DNA of 26,215 bases from IMG/VR virus record IMGVR_UViG_3300034356_000430, positions 1 through 26,215 of that record; one strand, given 5' to 3'. The stretch comes from a virus. Below the pieces are notes generated by a model. It ran no database searches and was not told where the DNA came from. It saw only the letters and a program-made list of their open reading frames with translations. A program made the position numbers and the translations under genes. Of the stretch, positions 5,373 through 21,872 are shown piece after piece; positions within the stretch are counted from its first letter, which is position 1; every line of letters begins with the position of its first letter.

Positions 5373-5891
5373 CTACAATCTGACCATTTTTGTATATTTA
5401 TCCAAGACCATTCTAACTTCTGCTTCGACAGCGGGCAGTTTCTTATCTACCGCGGGCCAAACAATACGAGAAGGATTACCGCCCAGACGAGCATTAAGCG
5501 ATTCAATAAAAGCCGCGCCTTGTTTACTTCTGGCCCGTTGAGCAGTATCGGCTATGGCAACCGAAGGTGCGTTCGCAACTACTCTTACTAACGAAGTGAT
5601 AAGAGTTTTTTTAGATCCAGTGCTCTTGAAACTAACTGAAACTGATTTGGCGGGAACTCTTTGTTTTTTATAGTTAACAGAGTTATTCCACGAAGTTCGC
5701 CCGTTATGACTCCAGCCGTCTTTACGTTTACCAAGAAACGGAGAATAAGCAGGGATAGCCTTTACGATAGCGTCCTGAATTACCTTCGCGGGCTTCTTTG
5801 CTTCCTTCTGAAGTTCCCGCTTCAACTTCACATCAATAAGGTCTAGCCGCCGATTTAGCTCACGAACGTTTGAGTAGATAACGTCTGCCAT
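5373..5891 (-). CDS. HK97 gp10-like tail/neck protein candidate
   Basis: A 172-aa basic protein whose ATG overlaps the stop of the frameshifted chaperone by one base (TAATG). The first 50 residues form a Lys/Glu-rich helix, then a Gly/Asn/Ser segment (DGWSHNGRTSWNNSVNYKKQ), a beta region (SVSVSFKSTGSKKTLITSLV) and a C-terminal helix. This order resembles HK97 gp10-like proteins, which sit at the head-tail junction and help to complete the tail. The unusual part is the position: gp10-like genes normally precede the tail terminator, but this one lies between chaperone and tape measure. It could instead be a distinct minor tail protein; assignment is tentative. Confidence 0.6.
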   Translation of the reverse strand: MADVIYSNVRELNRRLDLIDVKLKRELQKEAKKPAKVIQDAIVKAIPAYSPFLGKRKDGWSHNGRTSWNNSVNYKKQRVPAKSVSVSFKSTGSKKTLITSLVRVVANAPSVAIADTAQRARSKQGAAFIESLNARLGGNPSRIVWPAVDKKLPAVEAEVRMVLDKYTKMVRL

Positions 5892-9122: not shown

Positions 9123-10277
9123 TTAGCTTGCGCCACCCTTGAAGAAACCTACGTGGCTAGGAATGGTCAAGCCACCGCCAACACGAACAGTTCCCCGGAA
9201 AGTTGTAACGTCTGTGTTGAAAGCGTAGTCGCTTGACTGTGCGATCTGGATTCCACCTGCGACGCGAACTTTGTAAGACGGCAAGTGCCCAAATAGGACT
9301 GACTTAGTGCCAGTTCCAGTTGCCGGGACTGCCGGGTTCTCGAAGACAGGGTAACCGAGCAACTGTGCTGGCTGTCCGTTTACTGCGTTGTCTAGCCAGA
9401 TGTAATTGCCCGCGCCGTCTTTAAGTTTGCGCGCGGCCGCGATACCACTCTTAGACATTTGGAAACCGAGCCCGGGCAAAACGCGAGCTCCGTCGGCAAT
9501 TCCATATACCAAGTCGATTAGATTTTCGTAACTCGCAACACCAGAAACTCCAGTGCCACCTGTTACAACTGAGCCCGCTGAAGTTACAAGACCAGCAGTT
9601 CCAGTAGTTAGTTCCGCGTTCATAGCAATACCTAGAGACGTGCCCAACTGTTGCGCGATATATGCGCTAATGTCGAACCCTGCGTCGGCTACTAGTTCGT
9701 TAGCAACACTAACTAGCGCACCGAACTTCGTAGCTCCAAGAGTAATGCTTGCGAAAGTAGGGTTGCTCTCTGGAACTGCCGAACCTGCCGCAGTTGCGGT
9801 CGAAGATGAAATTGCGGTGGCAGTTGGAATGACCAAGTTCTCCCCGGAAGTTGTGTTGAAAACTTCTGAAGTCTGAAGCATAGGTCCTACGAGCGTAGCA
9901 ATTTGAAACACCTGGTCGTAAAAACTGCTTCCGACAGTGTTCGCGCTTGGCACAAGAGCGGCGCGACGTGAGAACTCAGTTCCGCGCATTTCACCGCGAG
10001 CAATTGAACGCAAAACGTCTGCGTCTGAACTCGAAGTTTCAGCGGTAGGAGTGAATGAAGCCGCCGCCTGAGCCGCTTCAGCCGAACGCTGTGCGACCTT
10101 CTGTGCGGTAGCGATTGAAGAGTCCGCTGAAGCGATATCTGCTTCTAGGCGGTCGATCTTCTGTAGATCTTCGGCAGACAATCCGCGCTTCTCCTGCTCG
10201 GCTAGGTCGATAACTTCTCGGACCTGCGCGATTAGGTTTGAACGAACGTCTGCCTGAGCTTTAATAAACTCAGACAT
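9123..10277 (-). CDS. Major capsid protein, HK97 fold
   Basis: A 384-aa protein with ATG at 10277 preceded by AAAGGAA at a good distance. Residues 1-80 are a charged helical, coiled-coil scaffold-like delta domain (REVIDLAEQEKRGLSAEDLQ, then a Glu/Ala helix), expected to be cut off by the protease upstream. From about residue 110 the mature HK97 fold follows: SSFYDQVFQIATLVGPMLQT, VPESNPTFASITLGATKFGA (E-loop and P-domain type), VSVANELVADAGFDISAYIA, and the C-terminal GGGLTIPSHVGFF. It is a single-gene unit flanked by terminators, with a tRNA-like RNA in its leader, unlike the rest of the tightly overlapped operon. Confidence 0.95.
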   Translation of the reverse strand: MSEFIKAQADVRSNLIAQVREVIDLAEQEKRGLSAEDLQKIDRLEADIASADSSIATAQKVAQRSAEAAQAAASFTPTAETSSSDADVLRSIARGEMRGTEFSRRAALVPSANTVGSSFYDQVFQIATLVGPMLQTSEVFNTTSGENLVIPTATAISSSTATAAGSAVPESNPTFASITLGATKFGALVSVANELVADAGFDISAYIAQQLGTSLGIAMNAELTTGTAGLVTSAGSVVTGGTGVSGVASYENLIDLVYGIADGARVLPGLGFQMSKSGIAAARKLKDGAGNYIWLDNAVNGQPAQLLGYPVFENPAVPATGTGTKSVLFGHLPSYKVRVAGGIQIAQSSDYAFNTDVTTFRGTVRVGGGLTIPSHVGFFKGGAS

Positions 10278-10313
10278 AATATTCCTTTGTTTGTTTGATT
10301 AGGGATTTTCTGC

Positions 10314-10352
10314 CGAGCAGACTCAGAGCAGAGCAGGTCGAGCAGACTCAGA
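10314..10352 (-). repeat. Two 14-nt direct repeats in the capsid leader
   Basis: The sequence CGAGCAGACTCAGA (plus strand) occurs at 10314-10327 and again exactly at 10339-10352, 25 bases apart, in the stretch between the tRNA-like element and the capsid start. In the minus-strand transcript each copy contains GAGUCU, which is complementary to AGACUC in the loop of the tRNA-like element. They may be a protein or RNA binding site; function unknown. Confidence 0.7.
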
Positions 10353-10391
10353 ACCTATAAACAATTCTAAATGGTGAGTGTAATGCGGAAA

Positions 10392-10475
10392 TGGTGGACT
10401 AGCAGAGAATCGAACTCTGGTCTTGTCGCTTCTCACTGAGAGTCTTAGACGACAATCGAAACCATTACCTAGCCC
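10392..10475 (-). ncRNA. tRNA-like RNA resembling a minimal tmRNA tRNA-like domain
   Basis: Read on the minus strand, 84 nt fold as follows. The acceptor stem is GGGCTAG (10475-10469) with CTAGTCC (10402-10396), 7 bp including a G3:U70 wobble, then A73 and encoded CCA (10394-10392). The T stem CAGAG/CTCTG with loop TTCGATT joins the acceptor directly. Between acceptor and middle stem is GTAATGGTTTCGA; GG-TTTCGA is the conserved tmRNA D-loop pattern at the same distance. The middle stem TTGTCG/CGACAA (10455-10450 with 10428-10423) closes a 21-nt loop holding a 4-bp TCTC/GAGA hairpin. No 5-bp stem with 7-nt anticodon loop can be drawn. G3:U70 plus A73 are the known alanyl-tRNA synthetase identity elements, also used by tmRNA. 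Likely substrate of RNase P and AlaRS; real function unknown. Confidence 0.75.
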
Positions 10476-10483
10476 CAGTAAAC

Positions 10484-10489
10484 ATTATT
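10484..10489 (-). promoter_or_regulatory. Candidate -10 element for the tRNA-like/capsid unit
   Basis: AATAAT on the minus strand (5 of 6 matches to TATAAT) ends seven bases before the G at 10476, so a transcript could start at the 5' end of the tRNA-like element. No recognisable -35 box lies at the right distance (TAGCGG only), which makes the call weak. Confidence 0.25.
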
Positions 10490-10496
10490 ACCAAGC

Positions 10497-10539
10497 AAAG
10501 AAAACCCCGCTAGCCGAAAGGGTTAGAAGACTAGCGGGG
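10497..10539 (-). terminator. Rho-independent terminator before the capsid unit
   Basis: Perfect 9-bp arms CCCCGCTAG (10505-10513) and CTAGCGGGG (10531-10539) with a 17-nt spacer are followed on the minus strand by TTTTCTTT. It lies after the 52-aa gene and just before the tRNA-like element, so it would separate the terminase-portal-protease transcript from the capsid transcript. A further hairpin, ACTCGC/GCGAGT (10541-10562), overlaps the end of the 52-aa gene. Confidence 0.8.
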
Positions 10540-10553
10540 AACTCGCCGAGCGA

Positions 10554-10712
10554 TTAGCGAGTTTCTTCTGCGGCTTTCACGCGAACTTCTTTAGTCGCGT
10601 TAGCCGAGTTTTGAATAGCGTCGATAAGTTCCTTGACCACGCCGACGCTAGGGTCTCCAGCGACTTCCTTGATAAGTTTTACCGCTAGTTCGATTTCGTC
10701 TTTCGTTGCCAT
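10554..10712 (-). CDS. 52-aa helical protein between protease and capsid genes
   Basis: A short gene read from the gap: ATG at 10712 overlaps the protease stop by one base (TAATG) and TAA is at 10554-10556. The product starts MATKDEIELAVKLIKEVAGD and ends KEVRVKAAEETR; it is 52 aa, highly charged and predicted almost wholly helical. Coupling to the protease gene and the place before the capsid gene suggest an assembly role such as an extra scaffold or protease partner, but no family is recognised. A terminator follows it. Confidence 0.8.
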   Translation of the reverse strand: MATKDEIELAVKLIKEVAGDPSVGVVKELIDAIQNSANATKEVRVKAAEETR

Positions 10713-12634
10713 TAGATTCCTAACATTAGTAGATCGAGCTTCTTCTTCTTCAGCGCCAAAATGTCGCCTTCGACTTCTTGAACTTCTGGAGTCTTAGTAA
10801 GTTTACTAACTACTTCGCTAACTAGATTTGCTTGCTCCGCTTCTAGTTCTTCTCCAAGTTCAAGTTTTAGCAAAGCGTCTGCCAGAGTGTCTGCGTCTAT
10901 CGCGCCTTCAATCGAGCGAACCGAAGTCGTCCCAGTTGTAGACATATATGCCGGGAAAGCAACTAAAGATACTTCGTGAAGCGAAACTCGATTTAGGGTT
11001 CGAACGTTACCCGTCTTATCCCAAGAGTCGCCGCCCTGCGGAACAGTAAAGCCAAAGCTCATAGCCGAAACGTCCCCACGTTTAAGAAGAACAGAAGCGT
11101 CCCGCCCTGCCTGAGTGTCCGGGAGAGAAGCAATAGCCTTCAAGCCGAAAGAATCTTCTACTAGGCGCAGGGTCCCCGCTCTAGTCGATCCAAGAACGAT
11201 TCCCGTATCGTGATTCCAGAGAAGCTTTATATCGTTCCTAGACTGAAGGCTCTTGCGGAAAGCACCCGGCGCGATACGTTCGATAAAGGGTAGCGGGCTA
11301 GAGTCTGAATTGAAAACAGCCGCGTAGCCTTCGAAGGTCATTCCGTCGCCTGTTTCACGAATCTCGAACTTTACGTCTGCGGTTCGGGTTTCATTAGGGT
11401 TCTTGGCCCTGCCTTCGTCCGATACGCCTTCGATTCTGGCCTTTATTGCGTAAGCCGCGTTTAGCCACTTCGTTCGGGTAGGAATAACCATAGACTCGGT
11501 AAGTTCTGGAAGTTCTTCGGGCTCGATAAGCGGCTGGACCTTCTTTAGATCGGCGATAAGGACAGTAACAGTTAGGCCAGTGGATTCCCAGTTTCTATCT
11601 TCTTCTTCGTAGATAGTAACCTGAGCAGAATCGCCTTCAAGGGCTACAACTTCCCCAGCATAGGCTTCAGTCCCAATAAGCCAAGCAACATAGTCGCCGA
11701 CGGCTAGTTCGTCTGGGAGAGCGCGGGTCTGTTCAATCATACGTTCGCTTTCTTCTTGTTCTCTAATTCTAGCAACCACCGAGTCGGCGTAATCTTGAGC
11801 GCGGCGAGCGGCGGTCTTGCTTGGTCCACTACCCCAGAGAAGGTGAGCAACTACGCCCGCCGAAGGATAGTTGTCTGAATTAGGGTTCGCGTCTGGACTA
11901 TCAAGGTCTACTAGGTGGCGGGCAATCCACGCCGCTATTCGAATCCATTTGTCGTCTGAAACTTGGCCTACTGCCATAAGTCGAGCTTCTCGGATAGTTC
12001 TATCGACTACGCCGTCGCCCGCTAGTCCCTGCTCGTAGTAGCGAAGTCCTTGTCTGGCCGCCGCTCTCATATAGGCGGGTGCGTCCTGATTTATCGCGCG
12101 AACCGAGTTCTCGTCTGGGAGAGCAACAGGGTCAGTCGCTTTTAGACCGAGTGTGCGGTAAGCCGCGAGCGCGTCATAGTTATTCTCGACGACTTCGATA
12201 ATGTTATAGGTTTCGAGAAGTTTCTCGGCGGTGGCCCGCTTGTATTCGGTCTGATCTTCGCTAGAACCTGGGTTCATTATTAGGCGGGTATAAGAAACGC
12301 CCAAATCGTCTAGGGTCTGCTTAGTGTCCGCTTCGTCGTCTACAGACCTGCCCGTAACTATGAAAAGCGCCGCGTCGAGCGACTGAAGATAGTTATAGGT
12401 TTTGCGAATTAGAGAATTACCACGAATAAGAGTGTCGTCAAGATCACTAATAACAATAGGTTCGCCCGCTTCATTTCTCTCTCCCATAAAAGGTTCGTCG
12501 TCGCCAAGACTAATAGCGACCGCCTGAGCAATAGCCGAGTCTTTTGTTTCGTGGCAACCGAAAACTTCGCCGCCCTGATCGACTACCGCCCAGCCTGAGC
12601 AGTCCGCCGCTTCGTCCGTAATGTAGTAAGGCAT
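10712..12634 (-). CDS. Head maturation protease fused to HAD phosphatase and accessory domains
   Basis: A 640-aa protein; ATG at 12634 is preferred because it overlaps the upstream stop (TAATG), while the longer frame would begin at TTG. Domains in order: residues 2-45, a small domain with DCSGWAVVDQGGEVFGCHET; about 57-175, a HAD phosphohydrolase with DLDDT (64-68), IVTGRS (92-97) and a late VVENNYD; about 215-290, a helical domain with YPSAGVVAHLLWGSG; about 310-367, an SH3-like unit (GDYVAWLIG, YAGEVVALEGD); about 420-565, an HK97 prohead protease (S78/U35) with LWNHD (His475), SAMSFGF (Ser526) and LHEVSLV (His553). A helical tail follows. The protease cuts the capsid delta domain in the prohead; the role of the HAD part is unknown. 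The catalytic residues of both look intact. Confidence 0.88.
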   Translation of the reverse strand: MPYYITDEAADCSGWAVVDQGGEVFGCHETKDSAIAQAVAISLGDDEPFMGERNEAGEPIVISDLDDTLIRGNSLIRKTYNYLQSLDAALFIVTGRSVDDEADTKQTLDDLGVSYTRLIMNPGSSEDQTEYKRATAEKLLETYNIIEVVENNYDALAAYRTLGLKATDPVALPDENSVRAINQDAPAYMRAAARQGLRYYEQGLAGDGVVDRTIREARLMAVGQVSDDKWIRIAAWIARHLVDLDSPDANPNSDNYPSAGVVAHLLWGSGPSKTAARRAQDYADSVVARIREQEESERMIEQTRALPDELAVGDYVAWLIGTEAYAGEVVALEGDSAQVTIYEEEDRNWESTGLTVTVLIADLKKVQPLIEPEELPELTESMVIPTRTKWLNAAYAIKARIEGVSDEGRAKNPNETRTADVKFEIRETGDGMTFEGYAAVFNSDSSPLPFIERIAPGAFRKSLQSRNDIKLLWNHDTGIVLGSTRAGTLRLVEDSFGLKAIASLPDTQAGRDASVLLKRGDVSAMSFGFTVPQGGDSWDKTGNVRTLNRVSLHEVSLVAFPAYMSTTGTTSVRSIEGAIDADTLADALLKLELGEELEAEQANLVSEVVSKLTKTPEVQEVEGDILALKKKKLDLLMLGI

Positions 12635-12894
12635 TAGGTTACCTTCAGCCAACTAACTAAGTGATTACTTGAACTTGATACAACCCAAACAGAATCACCG
12701 GGAGAAACCTGAATCTCTGTGGAATCGGTCTTTTCTAAAATAAGTCCATTAGAAGTTGTAACGTCGCCGCCGCCAAGATAAAGATTTATCTGATTATCGT
12801 TATTATGGATATGTAAACGATAAACGCTTTGGCTTGTGCCGTTCAGTTGAACGCGCGTAGTTCCTACTGTAACTTGCCCCGAACTAATTGCCAT
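12634..12894 (-). CDS. Small jelly-roll-like head protein
   Basis: An 86-aa protein made of short beta strands: SGQVTVGTTRVQLNG, VYRLHIHNNDNQINLYLGGG, GLILEKTDSTEIQVSPGDSV and WVVSSSSNHLVSWLKV. This strand order with a P-G-D-S-V-W-V-V turn is typical of small cupin/jelly-roll proteins that decorate phage particles. Both ends use TAATG overlaps, with the portal before it and the protease after it. Likely a decoration or accessory virion protein. Not related by clear sequence to the portal; function unproven. Confidence 0.75.
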   Translation of the reverse strand: MAISSGQVTVGTTRVQLNGTSQSVYRLHIHNNDNQINLYLGGGDVTTSNGLILEKTDSTEIQVSPGDSVWVVSSSSNHLVSWLKVT

Positions 12895-20492: not shown

Positions 20493-20737
20493 TTCTTATT
20501 TTCTTTCTCAATAATTGTTTGAGCGTTCTTATGAGCCCTAACCGCTTTTGAATCTCTAGCGCCTTCGAAGTAGCGCCCAGCGTGAAACATTATATTATCC
20601 CTAACCCTGTTATCGACCTTTGCTAGTTGCGGGGCGCGGTCGGCCTTGCGGGTGGCTGGGTGAAGCCACGTCTGATCGTGGCGCTCGGCTTCTAGGCTTA
20701 ATAGCCAGTTACGGGTTTCTTCTTCGGTCTTAGGCAT
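20489..20737 (-). CDS. Hypothetical protein, 82 aa
   Basis: The start is taken as ATG at 20737, with GGAG nine bases upstream and an 8-nt overlap with the ABC-GNAT stop (ATGCCTAA); a TTG five codons earlier is less likely. The product opens MPKTEEETRNWLLSLEAERH and has a charged middle with TWLHPATRKADRAPQLAKVD, an aromatic MFHAGRYFEGAR segment and a Lys/Glu-rich end. Not recognised; likely a nucleic-acid or protein-binding accessory protein. Confidence 0.72.
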   Translation of the reverse strand: MPKTEEETRNWLLSLEAERHDQTWLHPATRKADRAPQLAKVDNRVRDNIMFHAGRYFEGARDSKAVRAHKNAQTIIEKENKK

Positions 20738-21872
20738 TAGTTTTATCTCCAATCAGTTTGAATTCGTGGCTATAGGTAAATCGTTTAGGGTTTATTATCC
20801 AACTGCTAAATCTTTCTGGCCTTTGCTTTCTTATCTCGTCGGATACTGAATCAAGCCGATACTTCCTGTTCTTGCTTGTGGGTTTCCACTCCAAGCTTCG
20901 TTCTCTGTATTCTCCTAATCTTGGGTGGGCAGTCTTAGCAAAGAATCGGTTACCACGCGCAACATAGGCATTTGCTACAAAGTCTGCGAGCCTTGGACCA
21001 ATTCCTAAGCCTTGGTAATCGGGGTGGGTAACTAATCGGTGTCCCCGAAAAGCGTTATTGACTGTTCCGCTGGGGTAACTAATGACTGCGTAGAACCCTG
21101 CGGGTTGCTCTCCGACGACTGCGACGAAACATCTAGCGAACGGAGAAAGACTCGATTTGAGATAGTGGTGTTTAGCGTAAAACTCCCAAAAGGTCGCGGA
21201 TACTTCGTATACTTCTGCCACCATAGGTTCGAGCCGAAGACACTCCCGCGGATAAAGGACATACATTCCTGCGTCTGTATCTATAATCCAGTCTGGCTGA
21301 AGATAAGGCAGGATATCTCTATGGCAAGTAGCGATAACTAGGCCAGTCAGCTCTTCGCTCTTTATATGTTTGTGAAGTGATTTGCTCGCCGCTATTGCTA
21401 TGTTCCGATCCACTACCGAAGTATATTCGTCGATAACTAAGTTGCTTTGTAGGTTTACCGCTAAGTCTGCTCGGAACTTCTCGCCATTTGATAGGACTTT
21501 GTAAGGCTTTAGCCAAGTGGGAATTGAAGTTAGGCCAACTGCGTAAAGTTGCTTCTGGGCCGTAGTGGGGTCTGCGAAGTGATCTATTATCGCGGAGTCG
21601 TCCCAGACGTGCCCTTTTACTTCTCCAAACTGCTTTAGGAGAGTGCTCTTTCCCGTTCCACTAGCGCCCACGATTACGCCAAGACCAAAGGTTCTAGGTA
21701 GCGGCGGAAGTTTATACGGGGTGAAACTTGTAGTCCCGTCTGTTTCGTAGTCGAAGTTCTTTATAGCTTCTAGGGCCAGATCCGTAACTACGACCTTAGA
21801 AGTTAGGGGTTCTGATTCTTTATCTAGGGTTAGCCAAGAATCGGGGATAGTAAGTTCTTCGGTATTAGACAT
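20730..21872 (-). CDS. ABC-type ATPase fused to GNAT (Mom-like) acyltransferase
   Basis: A 380-aa fusion. Residues 60-200 form an ABC ATPase: Walker A GASGTGKST (69-77), signature LSNGEKFR (127-134), Walker B LVIDEYTSVVD (145-155) and switch His184 in ATCHRD. From about 220 a GNAT domain follows: YAKHHYLKSSLSPFARCFVA, GFYAVISYPSG, HRLVTHPDYQGLGIGPRLAD with the acyl-CoA loop QGLGIG (287-292), then TAHPRLG and LEWKPTSKN. Mom of phage Mu, which modifies adenine in DNA, belongs to the GNAT fold, and related GNAT domains occur in phages. A role in DNA base modification is therefore plausible but not proven; protein acylation is an alternative. The two domains are intact. Confidence 0.85.
   Translation of the reverse strand: MSNTEELTIPDSWLTLDKESEPLTSKVVVTDLALEAIKNFDYETDGTTSFTPYKLPPLPRTFGLGVIVGASGTGKSTLLKQFGEVKGHVWDDSAIIDHFADPTTAQKQLYAVGLTSIPTWLKPYKVLSNGEKFRADLAVNLQSNLVIDEYTSVVDRNIAIAASKSLHKHIKSEELTGLVIATCHRDILPYLQPDWIIDTDAGMYVLYPRECLRLEPMVAEVYEVSATFWEFYAKHHYLKSSLSPFARCFVAVVGEQPAGFYAVISYPSGTVNNAFRGHRLVTHPDYQGLGIGPRLADFVANAYVARGNRFFAKTAHPRLGEYRERSLEWKPTSKNRKYRLDSVSDEIRKQRPERFSSWIINPKRFTYSHEFKLIGDKTNA

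What the first reader, a model, noticed from the sequence alone, without database searches (positions are those of the whole stretch)
10392..10475. Minimal tmRNA-like, alanine-type tRNA mimic in the capsid gene leader
Seen: a perfect 7-bp acceptor stem with G3:U70, A73 and encoded CCA; a perfect T arm with TTCGATT loop; a D-region GTAATGGTTTCGA at the distance and with the GG-TTCGA pattern of tmRNA; a 6-bp stem (TTGTCG/CGACAA) placed like tmRNA P2. Absent: any 7-nt anticodon loop, tag ORF or pseudoknots. Known: G3:U70 with A73 is the alanyl-tRNA synthetase identity in tRNA-Ala and tmRNA. Inference: a charged, decoding-incompetent RNA that could act on stalled ribosomes, titrate AlaRS or EF-Tu, or serve as RNase P punctuation that frees capsid mRNA.
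Basis: partly seen in the sequence, partly recalled or inferred. Interest (0 to 1): 0.88.

Follow-up and report, generated by a model that had tools for sequence, protein, structure and literature searches.

The report
Phage-encoded tag-less mini tmRNA
Just upstream of its capsid gene this phage carries an 84-nucleotide RNA that is the tRNA-like half of the bacterial ribosome-rescue RNA (tmRNA) without its message half; about a hundred distinct relatives occur in phages of many bacteria, which suggests that phages commonly interfere with, or take over, their host's rescue of stalled ribosomes.

Summary
Window 10475-10392 (minus strand) is a tRNA-like domain (TLD) of tmRNA with a short capped P2 arm and no tag ORF or pseudoknots. 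Rfam tmRNA aligns end to end with the middle 308 positions skipped (34.7 bits, E=4.9e-13); ARAGORN finds no tRNA. IMG/VR scans and a covariance model give 99 distinct sequences. All helices covary (score 0.73 vs 0.16 shuffled, 0/500), while the alanine identity pair G3:U70 never changes: forbidding U70 leaves one match without a TLD fold, forbidding A73 none, against 114. The family is nearly absent from bacterial genomes. A third lie within 1 kb of a phage tRNA; many have a -10-like box at the 5' end. Named carriers: Streptomyces phages GiJojo and LuckySocke, Stenotrophomonas Jojan60, and Pontimonas phage phiPsal1, where it also precedes the capsid gene, unannotated. The kind is known from one phage, DS6A ("TLD only"); a similar RNA was reported to inhibit tmRNA (PMC4131195). 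Most likely it is alanylated, binds SmpB and EF-Tu, and competes with host tmRNA at stalled ribosomes. Capsid-mRNA punctuation is unlikely: relatives carry it elsewhere or lack it cleanly. No function was tested.

The parts
10392..10475 (-). TLD-only mini tmRNA (84 nt with encoded CCA)
   Evidence: sequence; RF00023 match E=4.9e-13; covariance model R1 90 bits (the model was built from members of the family, including this sequence via L001); 99-sequence covariation
10469..10475 (-). acceptor stem 5' strand GGGCTAG, carrying G3
   Evidence: 7/7 pairs with 10396-10402; pairs 4-7 covary, 1-3 invariant
10456..10468 (-). D region GTAATGGTTTCGA (the region that contacts SmpB in tmRNA)
   Evidence: aligns to tmRNA D region; SmpB contact of the tmRNA D arm from PMC3985003
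10423..10455 (-). P2-like arm TTGTCG/CGACAA with a 21-nt cap (internal loop with conserved AA, small hairpin CUC/GAG)
   Evidence: helix 2 94.4% and helix 3 98.4% of cells paired, changes on both sides at every pair; column counts
10403..10419 (-). T arm CAGAG-TTCGATT-CTCTG
   Evidence: 100% of cells paired, 4 of 5 pairs covary
10392..10402 (-). acceptor 3' strand CTAGTCC (U70), A73 and CCA
   Evidence: U70 and A73 controls (against 51)
10476..10490 (-). possible -10-like box (TAATAATGT; TAATGT ends 6 nt before the 5' end)
   Evidence: family-wide TANNNT peaks at 6 and 9 nt; weak in the window itself, no sigma-70 consensus match
10497..10539 (-). terminator-like hairpin CCCCGCTAG...CTAGCGGGG plus TTTTCTTT, ending the upstream gene and separating it from the element
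   Evidence: sequence, conserved in relatives; not called by the simple scan because its loop is too long
10364..10369 (-). capsid promoter -10 TAGAAT, downstream of the element
   Evidence: kept in relatives with and without the element

Best explanation
It is a phage-encoded tmRNA reduced to its tRNA-like domain plus a short capped P2 arm. Shown: the fold, homology to tmRNA, covariation of every helix, strict keeping of the alanine identity (G3:U70, A73), a conserved D/T elbow, frequent placement in phage tRNA clusters or behind a -10-like box, and near restriction to phages. Inferred: it is cut out by RNase P and 3' processing, charged with alanine by host AlaRS, bound by host SmpB and EF-Tu, and delivered to ribosomes stalled without a codon in the A site. 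Having no resume codon or tag, it cannot complete trans-translation, so it competes with host tmRNA for SmpB and stalled ribosomes and suppresses SsrA tagging during infection.
For: RF00023 tmRNA match over the whole TLD with the middle skipped. 99 distinct sequences, 97.9% of cells paired, 594 double changes, covariation 0.734 vs 0.163 shuffled. G3:U70 in all; U70 or A73 forbidden gives 1 chance match or 0 against 114. No tag ORF; cap at most about 20 nt in nearly all members. 32/97 within 1 kb of tRNAs, several 0-5 nt away; -10-like boxes at the 5' end. Found in named phages of Streptomyces, Pontimonas and Stenotrophomonas. Only 3 of 14 pattern matches in 84,980 bacterial species hold up. 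Literature: phage DS6A has a TLD-only tmRNA; a similar molecule strongly inhibits tmRNA, perhaps by titrating SmpB (PMC4131195; PMC11915505).
Against: No expression, charging, SmpB-binding or inhibition data for any member of this family. The reported inhibition did not need charging, so SmpB titration alone does not explain the absolute conservation of G3:U70. The window's own promoter match is weak. Some relatives seem to lack the element, though most records are fragments. Whether DS6A belongs to this same family could not be checked.
Confidence: 0.6

Rival explanations
1. Tag-less rescue: the alanylated TLD enters stalled ribosomes with SmpB, takes the nascent chain and frees or recycles the ribosome without tagging, which helps the phage keep ribosomes and proteins (the kind of role suggested for tag-less mitochondrial tmRNAs).
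For: Absolute conservation of charging identity fits an active acceptor better than a passive sponge. Tag-less mitochondrial tmRNAs co-occur with imported SmpB and are thought to help with incomplete mRNAs (PMC11915505).
Against: A TLD-only molecule was reported to inhibit tmRNA. After transfer there is no stop codon, so a further release factor would be needed. Tag-less mitochondrial tmRNAs have been argued to lack the bacterial type of trans-translation (PMC3985003).
Confidence: 0.22
2. Decoy for AlaRS or EF-Tu, or a store of alanyl-RNA for a non-ribosomal reaction; the ribosome and SmpB are not involved.
For: G3:U70 and A73 are absolute; an ordinary acceptor/T-arm minihelix would be enough for AlaRS and EF-Tu.
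Against: The D region and P2-like arm are kept and covary although neither is needed for AlaRS or EF-Tu; both are tmRNA/SmpB features.
Confidence: 0.08
3. RNase P punctuation: the element is cut out to set the 5' end of capsid mRNA.
For: Lies between the upstream gene and the capsid gene in the window, in close relatives and in phiPsal1.
Against: The capsid promoter and 5' hairpins are kept without it; six relatives carry it elsewhere; other phages have it in tRNA clusters; a terminator-like hairpin follows it in L049 and L026.
Confidence: 0.04
4. attP remnant for integration into host ssrA, or a decayed tmRNA gene.
For: Many phages integrate at ssrA; Mycobacterium phage Validus carries an ssrA-like 3' segment just before an integrase gene.
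Against: Both halves of the TLD are present and covary. None of the 20 window proteins scanned is an integrase. phiPsal1 was described as lytic and has no annotated integrase. The Validus segment scores only 15.6 bits with model R2.
Confidence: 0.02

Closest known systems
Mycobacterium phage DS6A TLD-only tmRNA (tmID 11587; Mao et al. 2009, as cited in PMC4131195 and PMC11915505)
   Different: A single recorded phage; its sequence could not be fetched, so shared arm and cap are unknown. Here a large covarying family in phages of several bacterial groups.
Bacterial tmRNA, ssrA (Rfam RF00023)
   Same: Acceptor with G3:U70, A73, deformed D region, T arm, P2 helix start.
   Different: No mRNA-like domain, tag ORF or pseudoknots; about 300 model positions missing.
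Tag-less mitochondrial tmRNA of jakobids and oomycetes (RF02544; Jacob 2004, Hafez 2013, as cited in PMC11915505 and PMC3985003)
   Same: TLD kept, tag and pseudoknots lost.
   Different: Organellar, usually from a permuted gene; no RF02544 match was listed for the window.
tRNA-Ala
   Same: G3:U70, A73, T arm.
   Different: No D stem and no anticodon arm; ARAGORN finds none.

Membership tests
tmRNA (full, RF00023) | tRNA-like domain with G3:U70 acceptor, A73, D region and T arm | tested here: met
tmRNA (full, RF00023) | mRNA-like domain with resume codon and tag ORF | tested here: not met
   only 21 nt of cap inside the arm; 308 model positions skipped; UAA in the cap is not conserved
tmRNA (full, RF00023) | pseudoknots | tested here: not met
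   no room for them; model positions skipped
tmRNA (full, RF00023) | score above Rfam's gathering threshold (47 bits) | tested here: not met
   window 34.7 bits; relative L107 53.2 bits passes
TLD-only phage tmRNA (DS6A kind) | phage gene consisting of the tmRNA TLD without a tag | tested here: met
   G000 is a virus record
TLD-only phage tmRNA (DS6A kind) | sequence kinship with DS6A's RNA | not testable with these tools
   record not held
TLD-only phage tmRNA (DS6A kind) | inhibits host tmRNA | not testable with these tools
   experiment needed; reported for a similar molecule
tRNA | anticodon arm with 7-nt loop and D stem | tested here: not met
   ARAGORN 0 genes; no such arm in the alignment
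attP at ssrA | ssrA 3' half next to an integrase gene | tested here: not met
   no integrase among the 20 window proteins scanned; both halves present and covarying

The most novel reading that the evidence does not exclude
A phage-run, tag-less form of trans-translation: the alanyl-charged TLD acts on stalled ribosomes as a real acceptor of nascent chains (possibly repeatedly, leaving alanine additions) instead of only soaking up SmpB, and this is a widespread phage strategy across bacterial groups.
Probability: 0.25. Interest if true: 0.87.

Novelty: new member of a known kind. Interest (0 to 1): 0.7.

Why it matters
In the papers I could read, one phage with a TLD-only tmRNA was on record as an oddity. 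Here it is a large, strongly covarying, nearly phage-restricted RNA gene family that the annotation seen misses (in GiJojo a protein gene is called over it). It points to ribosome rescue as a common target of phages, makes that testable in cultured phages, and offers natural minimal TLDs for structural work on SmpB, AlaRS and the ribosome.

Tried and rejected
Whole-window Rfam scan at E<=10 and ARAGORN missed it. Folding energy was uninformative (z -0.09). The first collection pattern was off by one base and gave mostly chance matches plus one real variant, L087; corrected. BLAST with the window element in phage records found only tRNA and chance matches; other family members found the Streptomyces and Stenotrophomonas phages. 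Bacterial genome matches were mostly ends of other RNAs (several look like tmRNA 3' parts) or chance and fail the pairing test. A longer-middle pattern gave five matches; by eye L233 and L236 look like longer relatives, L232 contains a normal-length element, L234/L235 were not resolved. Phage cr130_1 holds an annotated full tmRNA. Streptomyces phage Alone3 has what looks like a decaying copy (55 bits, D-loop and T stem damaged). DS6A could not be fetched. Ideas rejected: attP, capsid punctuation, pseudogene (covariation), hidden stop or tag codon in the cap (UAA is often GAA, CAA or AAA).

Full report
What is there. On the minus strand, 10475-10392, upstream of the major capsid gene (9123-10277, Pfam Phage_capsid), lies an 84-nt sequence with a perfect 7-bp acceptor stem (G3:U70), A73 and encoded CCA, a perfect T arm, the D-region GGTTTCGA of tmRNA, and a 6-bp arm capped by 21 nt. 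ARAGORN sees nothing, and the whole-window Rfam scan does not list it. Given the short stretch alone, Rfam's tmRNA model aligns it from its first to its last position with 308 positions skipped, 34.7 bits, E=4.9e-13 for that search. A relative, L107, scores 53.2 bits, above the gathering threshold. Folding energy by itself is not remarkable.

Relatives. Capsid homologues in IMG/VR show the element in the same leader in close relatives, with base changes that keep the stems. A pattern that fixes only loop and end letters (GTTTCGA, GACC, T loop, CCACC) and leaves the stems and position 70 free gave 49 stretches with 31 distinct elements. All had 7/7 acceptor and 5/5 T-stem pairs and G3:U70. A second scan, without the CCA but with U70 and A73 fixed, gave 114 stretches (80 listed). 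After parsing, 98 candidates passed loose pairing, 96 of them with perfect stems; one of the 98 (L227) is a chance match and is left out below.

Covariation. A covariance model made from nine members separates the family (48 bits or more) from other matches in the same loci (28 bits or less). On the 100-row alignment (99 distinct), 97.9% of cells pair and 17 of 21 pairs show changes on both sides. There are 594 double changes against 147 in shuffles, and the covariation score is 0.734 against 0.163 (0/500); sliding the partner strand destroys the signal. This alignment was fitted to the model, so it leans towards the structure, but the acceptor and T stems have fixed length and hardly need fitting. 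GTTTCGA and GACC were imposed by the patterns, so their conservation is partly built in.

Controls at positions 70 and 73. Repeating the scan with U70 forbidden gave one match, which shows no TLD fold on reading and no model score above background. With A73 forbidden it gave none. So alanine identity is under near-absolute constraint while acceptor pairs 4-6 exchange freely.

Distribution. The bacterial-genome scan (84,980 species) returned 14 matches, of which only L220, L224 and L225 pass the pairing test. L224 lies on a contig of the same length as the viral record behind L109, and L225 carries the same element as L101. One circular 27-kb Pseudonocardia plasmid with an integrase also carries one (72.5 bits). 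Among phage records it is in Streptomyces phages GiJojo, LuckySocke and pSt2308, in Stenotrophomonas phage Jojan60, and in Pontimonas phage phiPsal1, annotated as an RNA in none. In phiPsal1, whose capsid is 49% identical, it lies at 5569-5649, just before the capsid gene. That phage was described as lytic, without integration, and is no longer available (PMC6106888). Microbacterium phage Armstrong has a more diverged 92-nt candidate beside tRNA-Asn (37.5 bits).

Gene-like behaviour. Of 97 elements, 32 lie within 1 kb of a tRNA and several directly abut one (0-5 nt), consistent with maturation like tRNA. Among 95 elements with enough upstream sequence, TANNNT occurs 31 times at 5-9 nt before the 5' end, with sharp peaks at 6 and 9, against roughly one per position elsewhere. 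In the window the -10-like box is weak, and no full sigma-70 match is found. In L049 and L026 the element is followed within a few bases by a G+C-rich hairpin and T run (read by eye). L009 lacks the element together with the stretch before it, as a clean gap between the upstream terminator and the capsid promoter. Six other relatives carry it elsewhere in the genome; in L245 it overlaps what looks like the stop codon of the gene before it. It therefore behaves as a unit and is not part of the capsid leader as such.

Mechanism. By established knowledge, tmRNA's third acceptor pair is completely conserved as G-U for AlaRS, and its deformed D arm contacts SmpB (PMC3985003); TLD plus SmpB mimics a whole tRNA in the A site of a stalled ribosome. 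A TLD without message can make the early steps but not the last. [quoted passage not shown] a similar molecule, chargeable or not, strongly inhibited tmRNA, perhaps by titrating SmpB (PMC4131195; PMC11915505, citing Mao et al. 2009, which I could not read). I therefore favour a competitor or inhibitor of host trans-translation. Titration alone was reported not to need charging, yet charging identity is strict here, so a step on the ribosome is likely part of the function. Whether that step poisons or rescues without a tag is open. Everything after the fold and identity elements is inference.

Novelty. The kind (TLD-only phage tmRNA) is known from one phage in the papers read; the update of the tmRNA database lists only nine 'standard, no CDS' sequences from all sources. 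What is new is the scale, the covariation, the strict alanine identity and the near restriction to phages. I found no description of this family in the held library, which lacks most subscription journals. Limits: patterns miss diverged members, so the counts are minima; most viral contigs are fragments, so absence in them means little; hosts are known only for the few isolates.

Noticed in passing
window 10310-10355, minus strand: Two tandem bulged hairpins in the capsid mRNA 5' leader (GGTTCTGAGTCTGCTCGACC and CTGCTCTGAGTCTGCTCGGCAG), present in all 23 aligned capsid relatives including phiPsal1; 98.5% of cells paired and the middle pair of each inner stem swaps among C-G, U-A and A-U. Possibly a protein-binding or mRNA-stability element of capsid mRNA.
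   Followed up: partly
L075 about 1275-1700 and L076 4375-4459 (capsid leaders of relatives): Further tRNA-like units with T-arm-like hairpins ending in AGTCCAC or AGCCCAC, apparently several in a row in L075; they score only 15 bits with the family model, so they are a diverged or separate kind.
   Followed up: partly
L019/L020, about 100 nt upstream of the mini-TLD (before 5809): An apparently structured stretch closed by GCCCGC...GCGGGC behind a -10-like box; the capsid leader looks like a hotspot for variable small RNA genes.
   Followed up: no
L145 and L154 (both IMGVR_UViG_3300027749_000047): One phage contig carries two different mini-TLDs.
   Followed up: no
window 20730-21872, minus strand: One ORF with a P-loop-like ATPase part at its N-terminus (read by eye) and a GNAT acetyltransferase domain at its C-terminus.
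   Followed up: no
window 10712-12652, minus strand: Prohead protease (Peptidase_S78) with an extra HAD-type acid phosphatase domain near its N-terminus.
   Followed up: no
L134 2999-3241 (Streptomyces phage GiJojo gene 44): A hypothetical protein gene is annotated over the mini-TLD; it may be a false call on RNA gene sequence.
   Followed up: no
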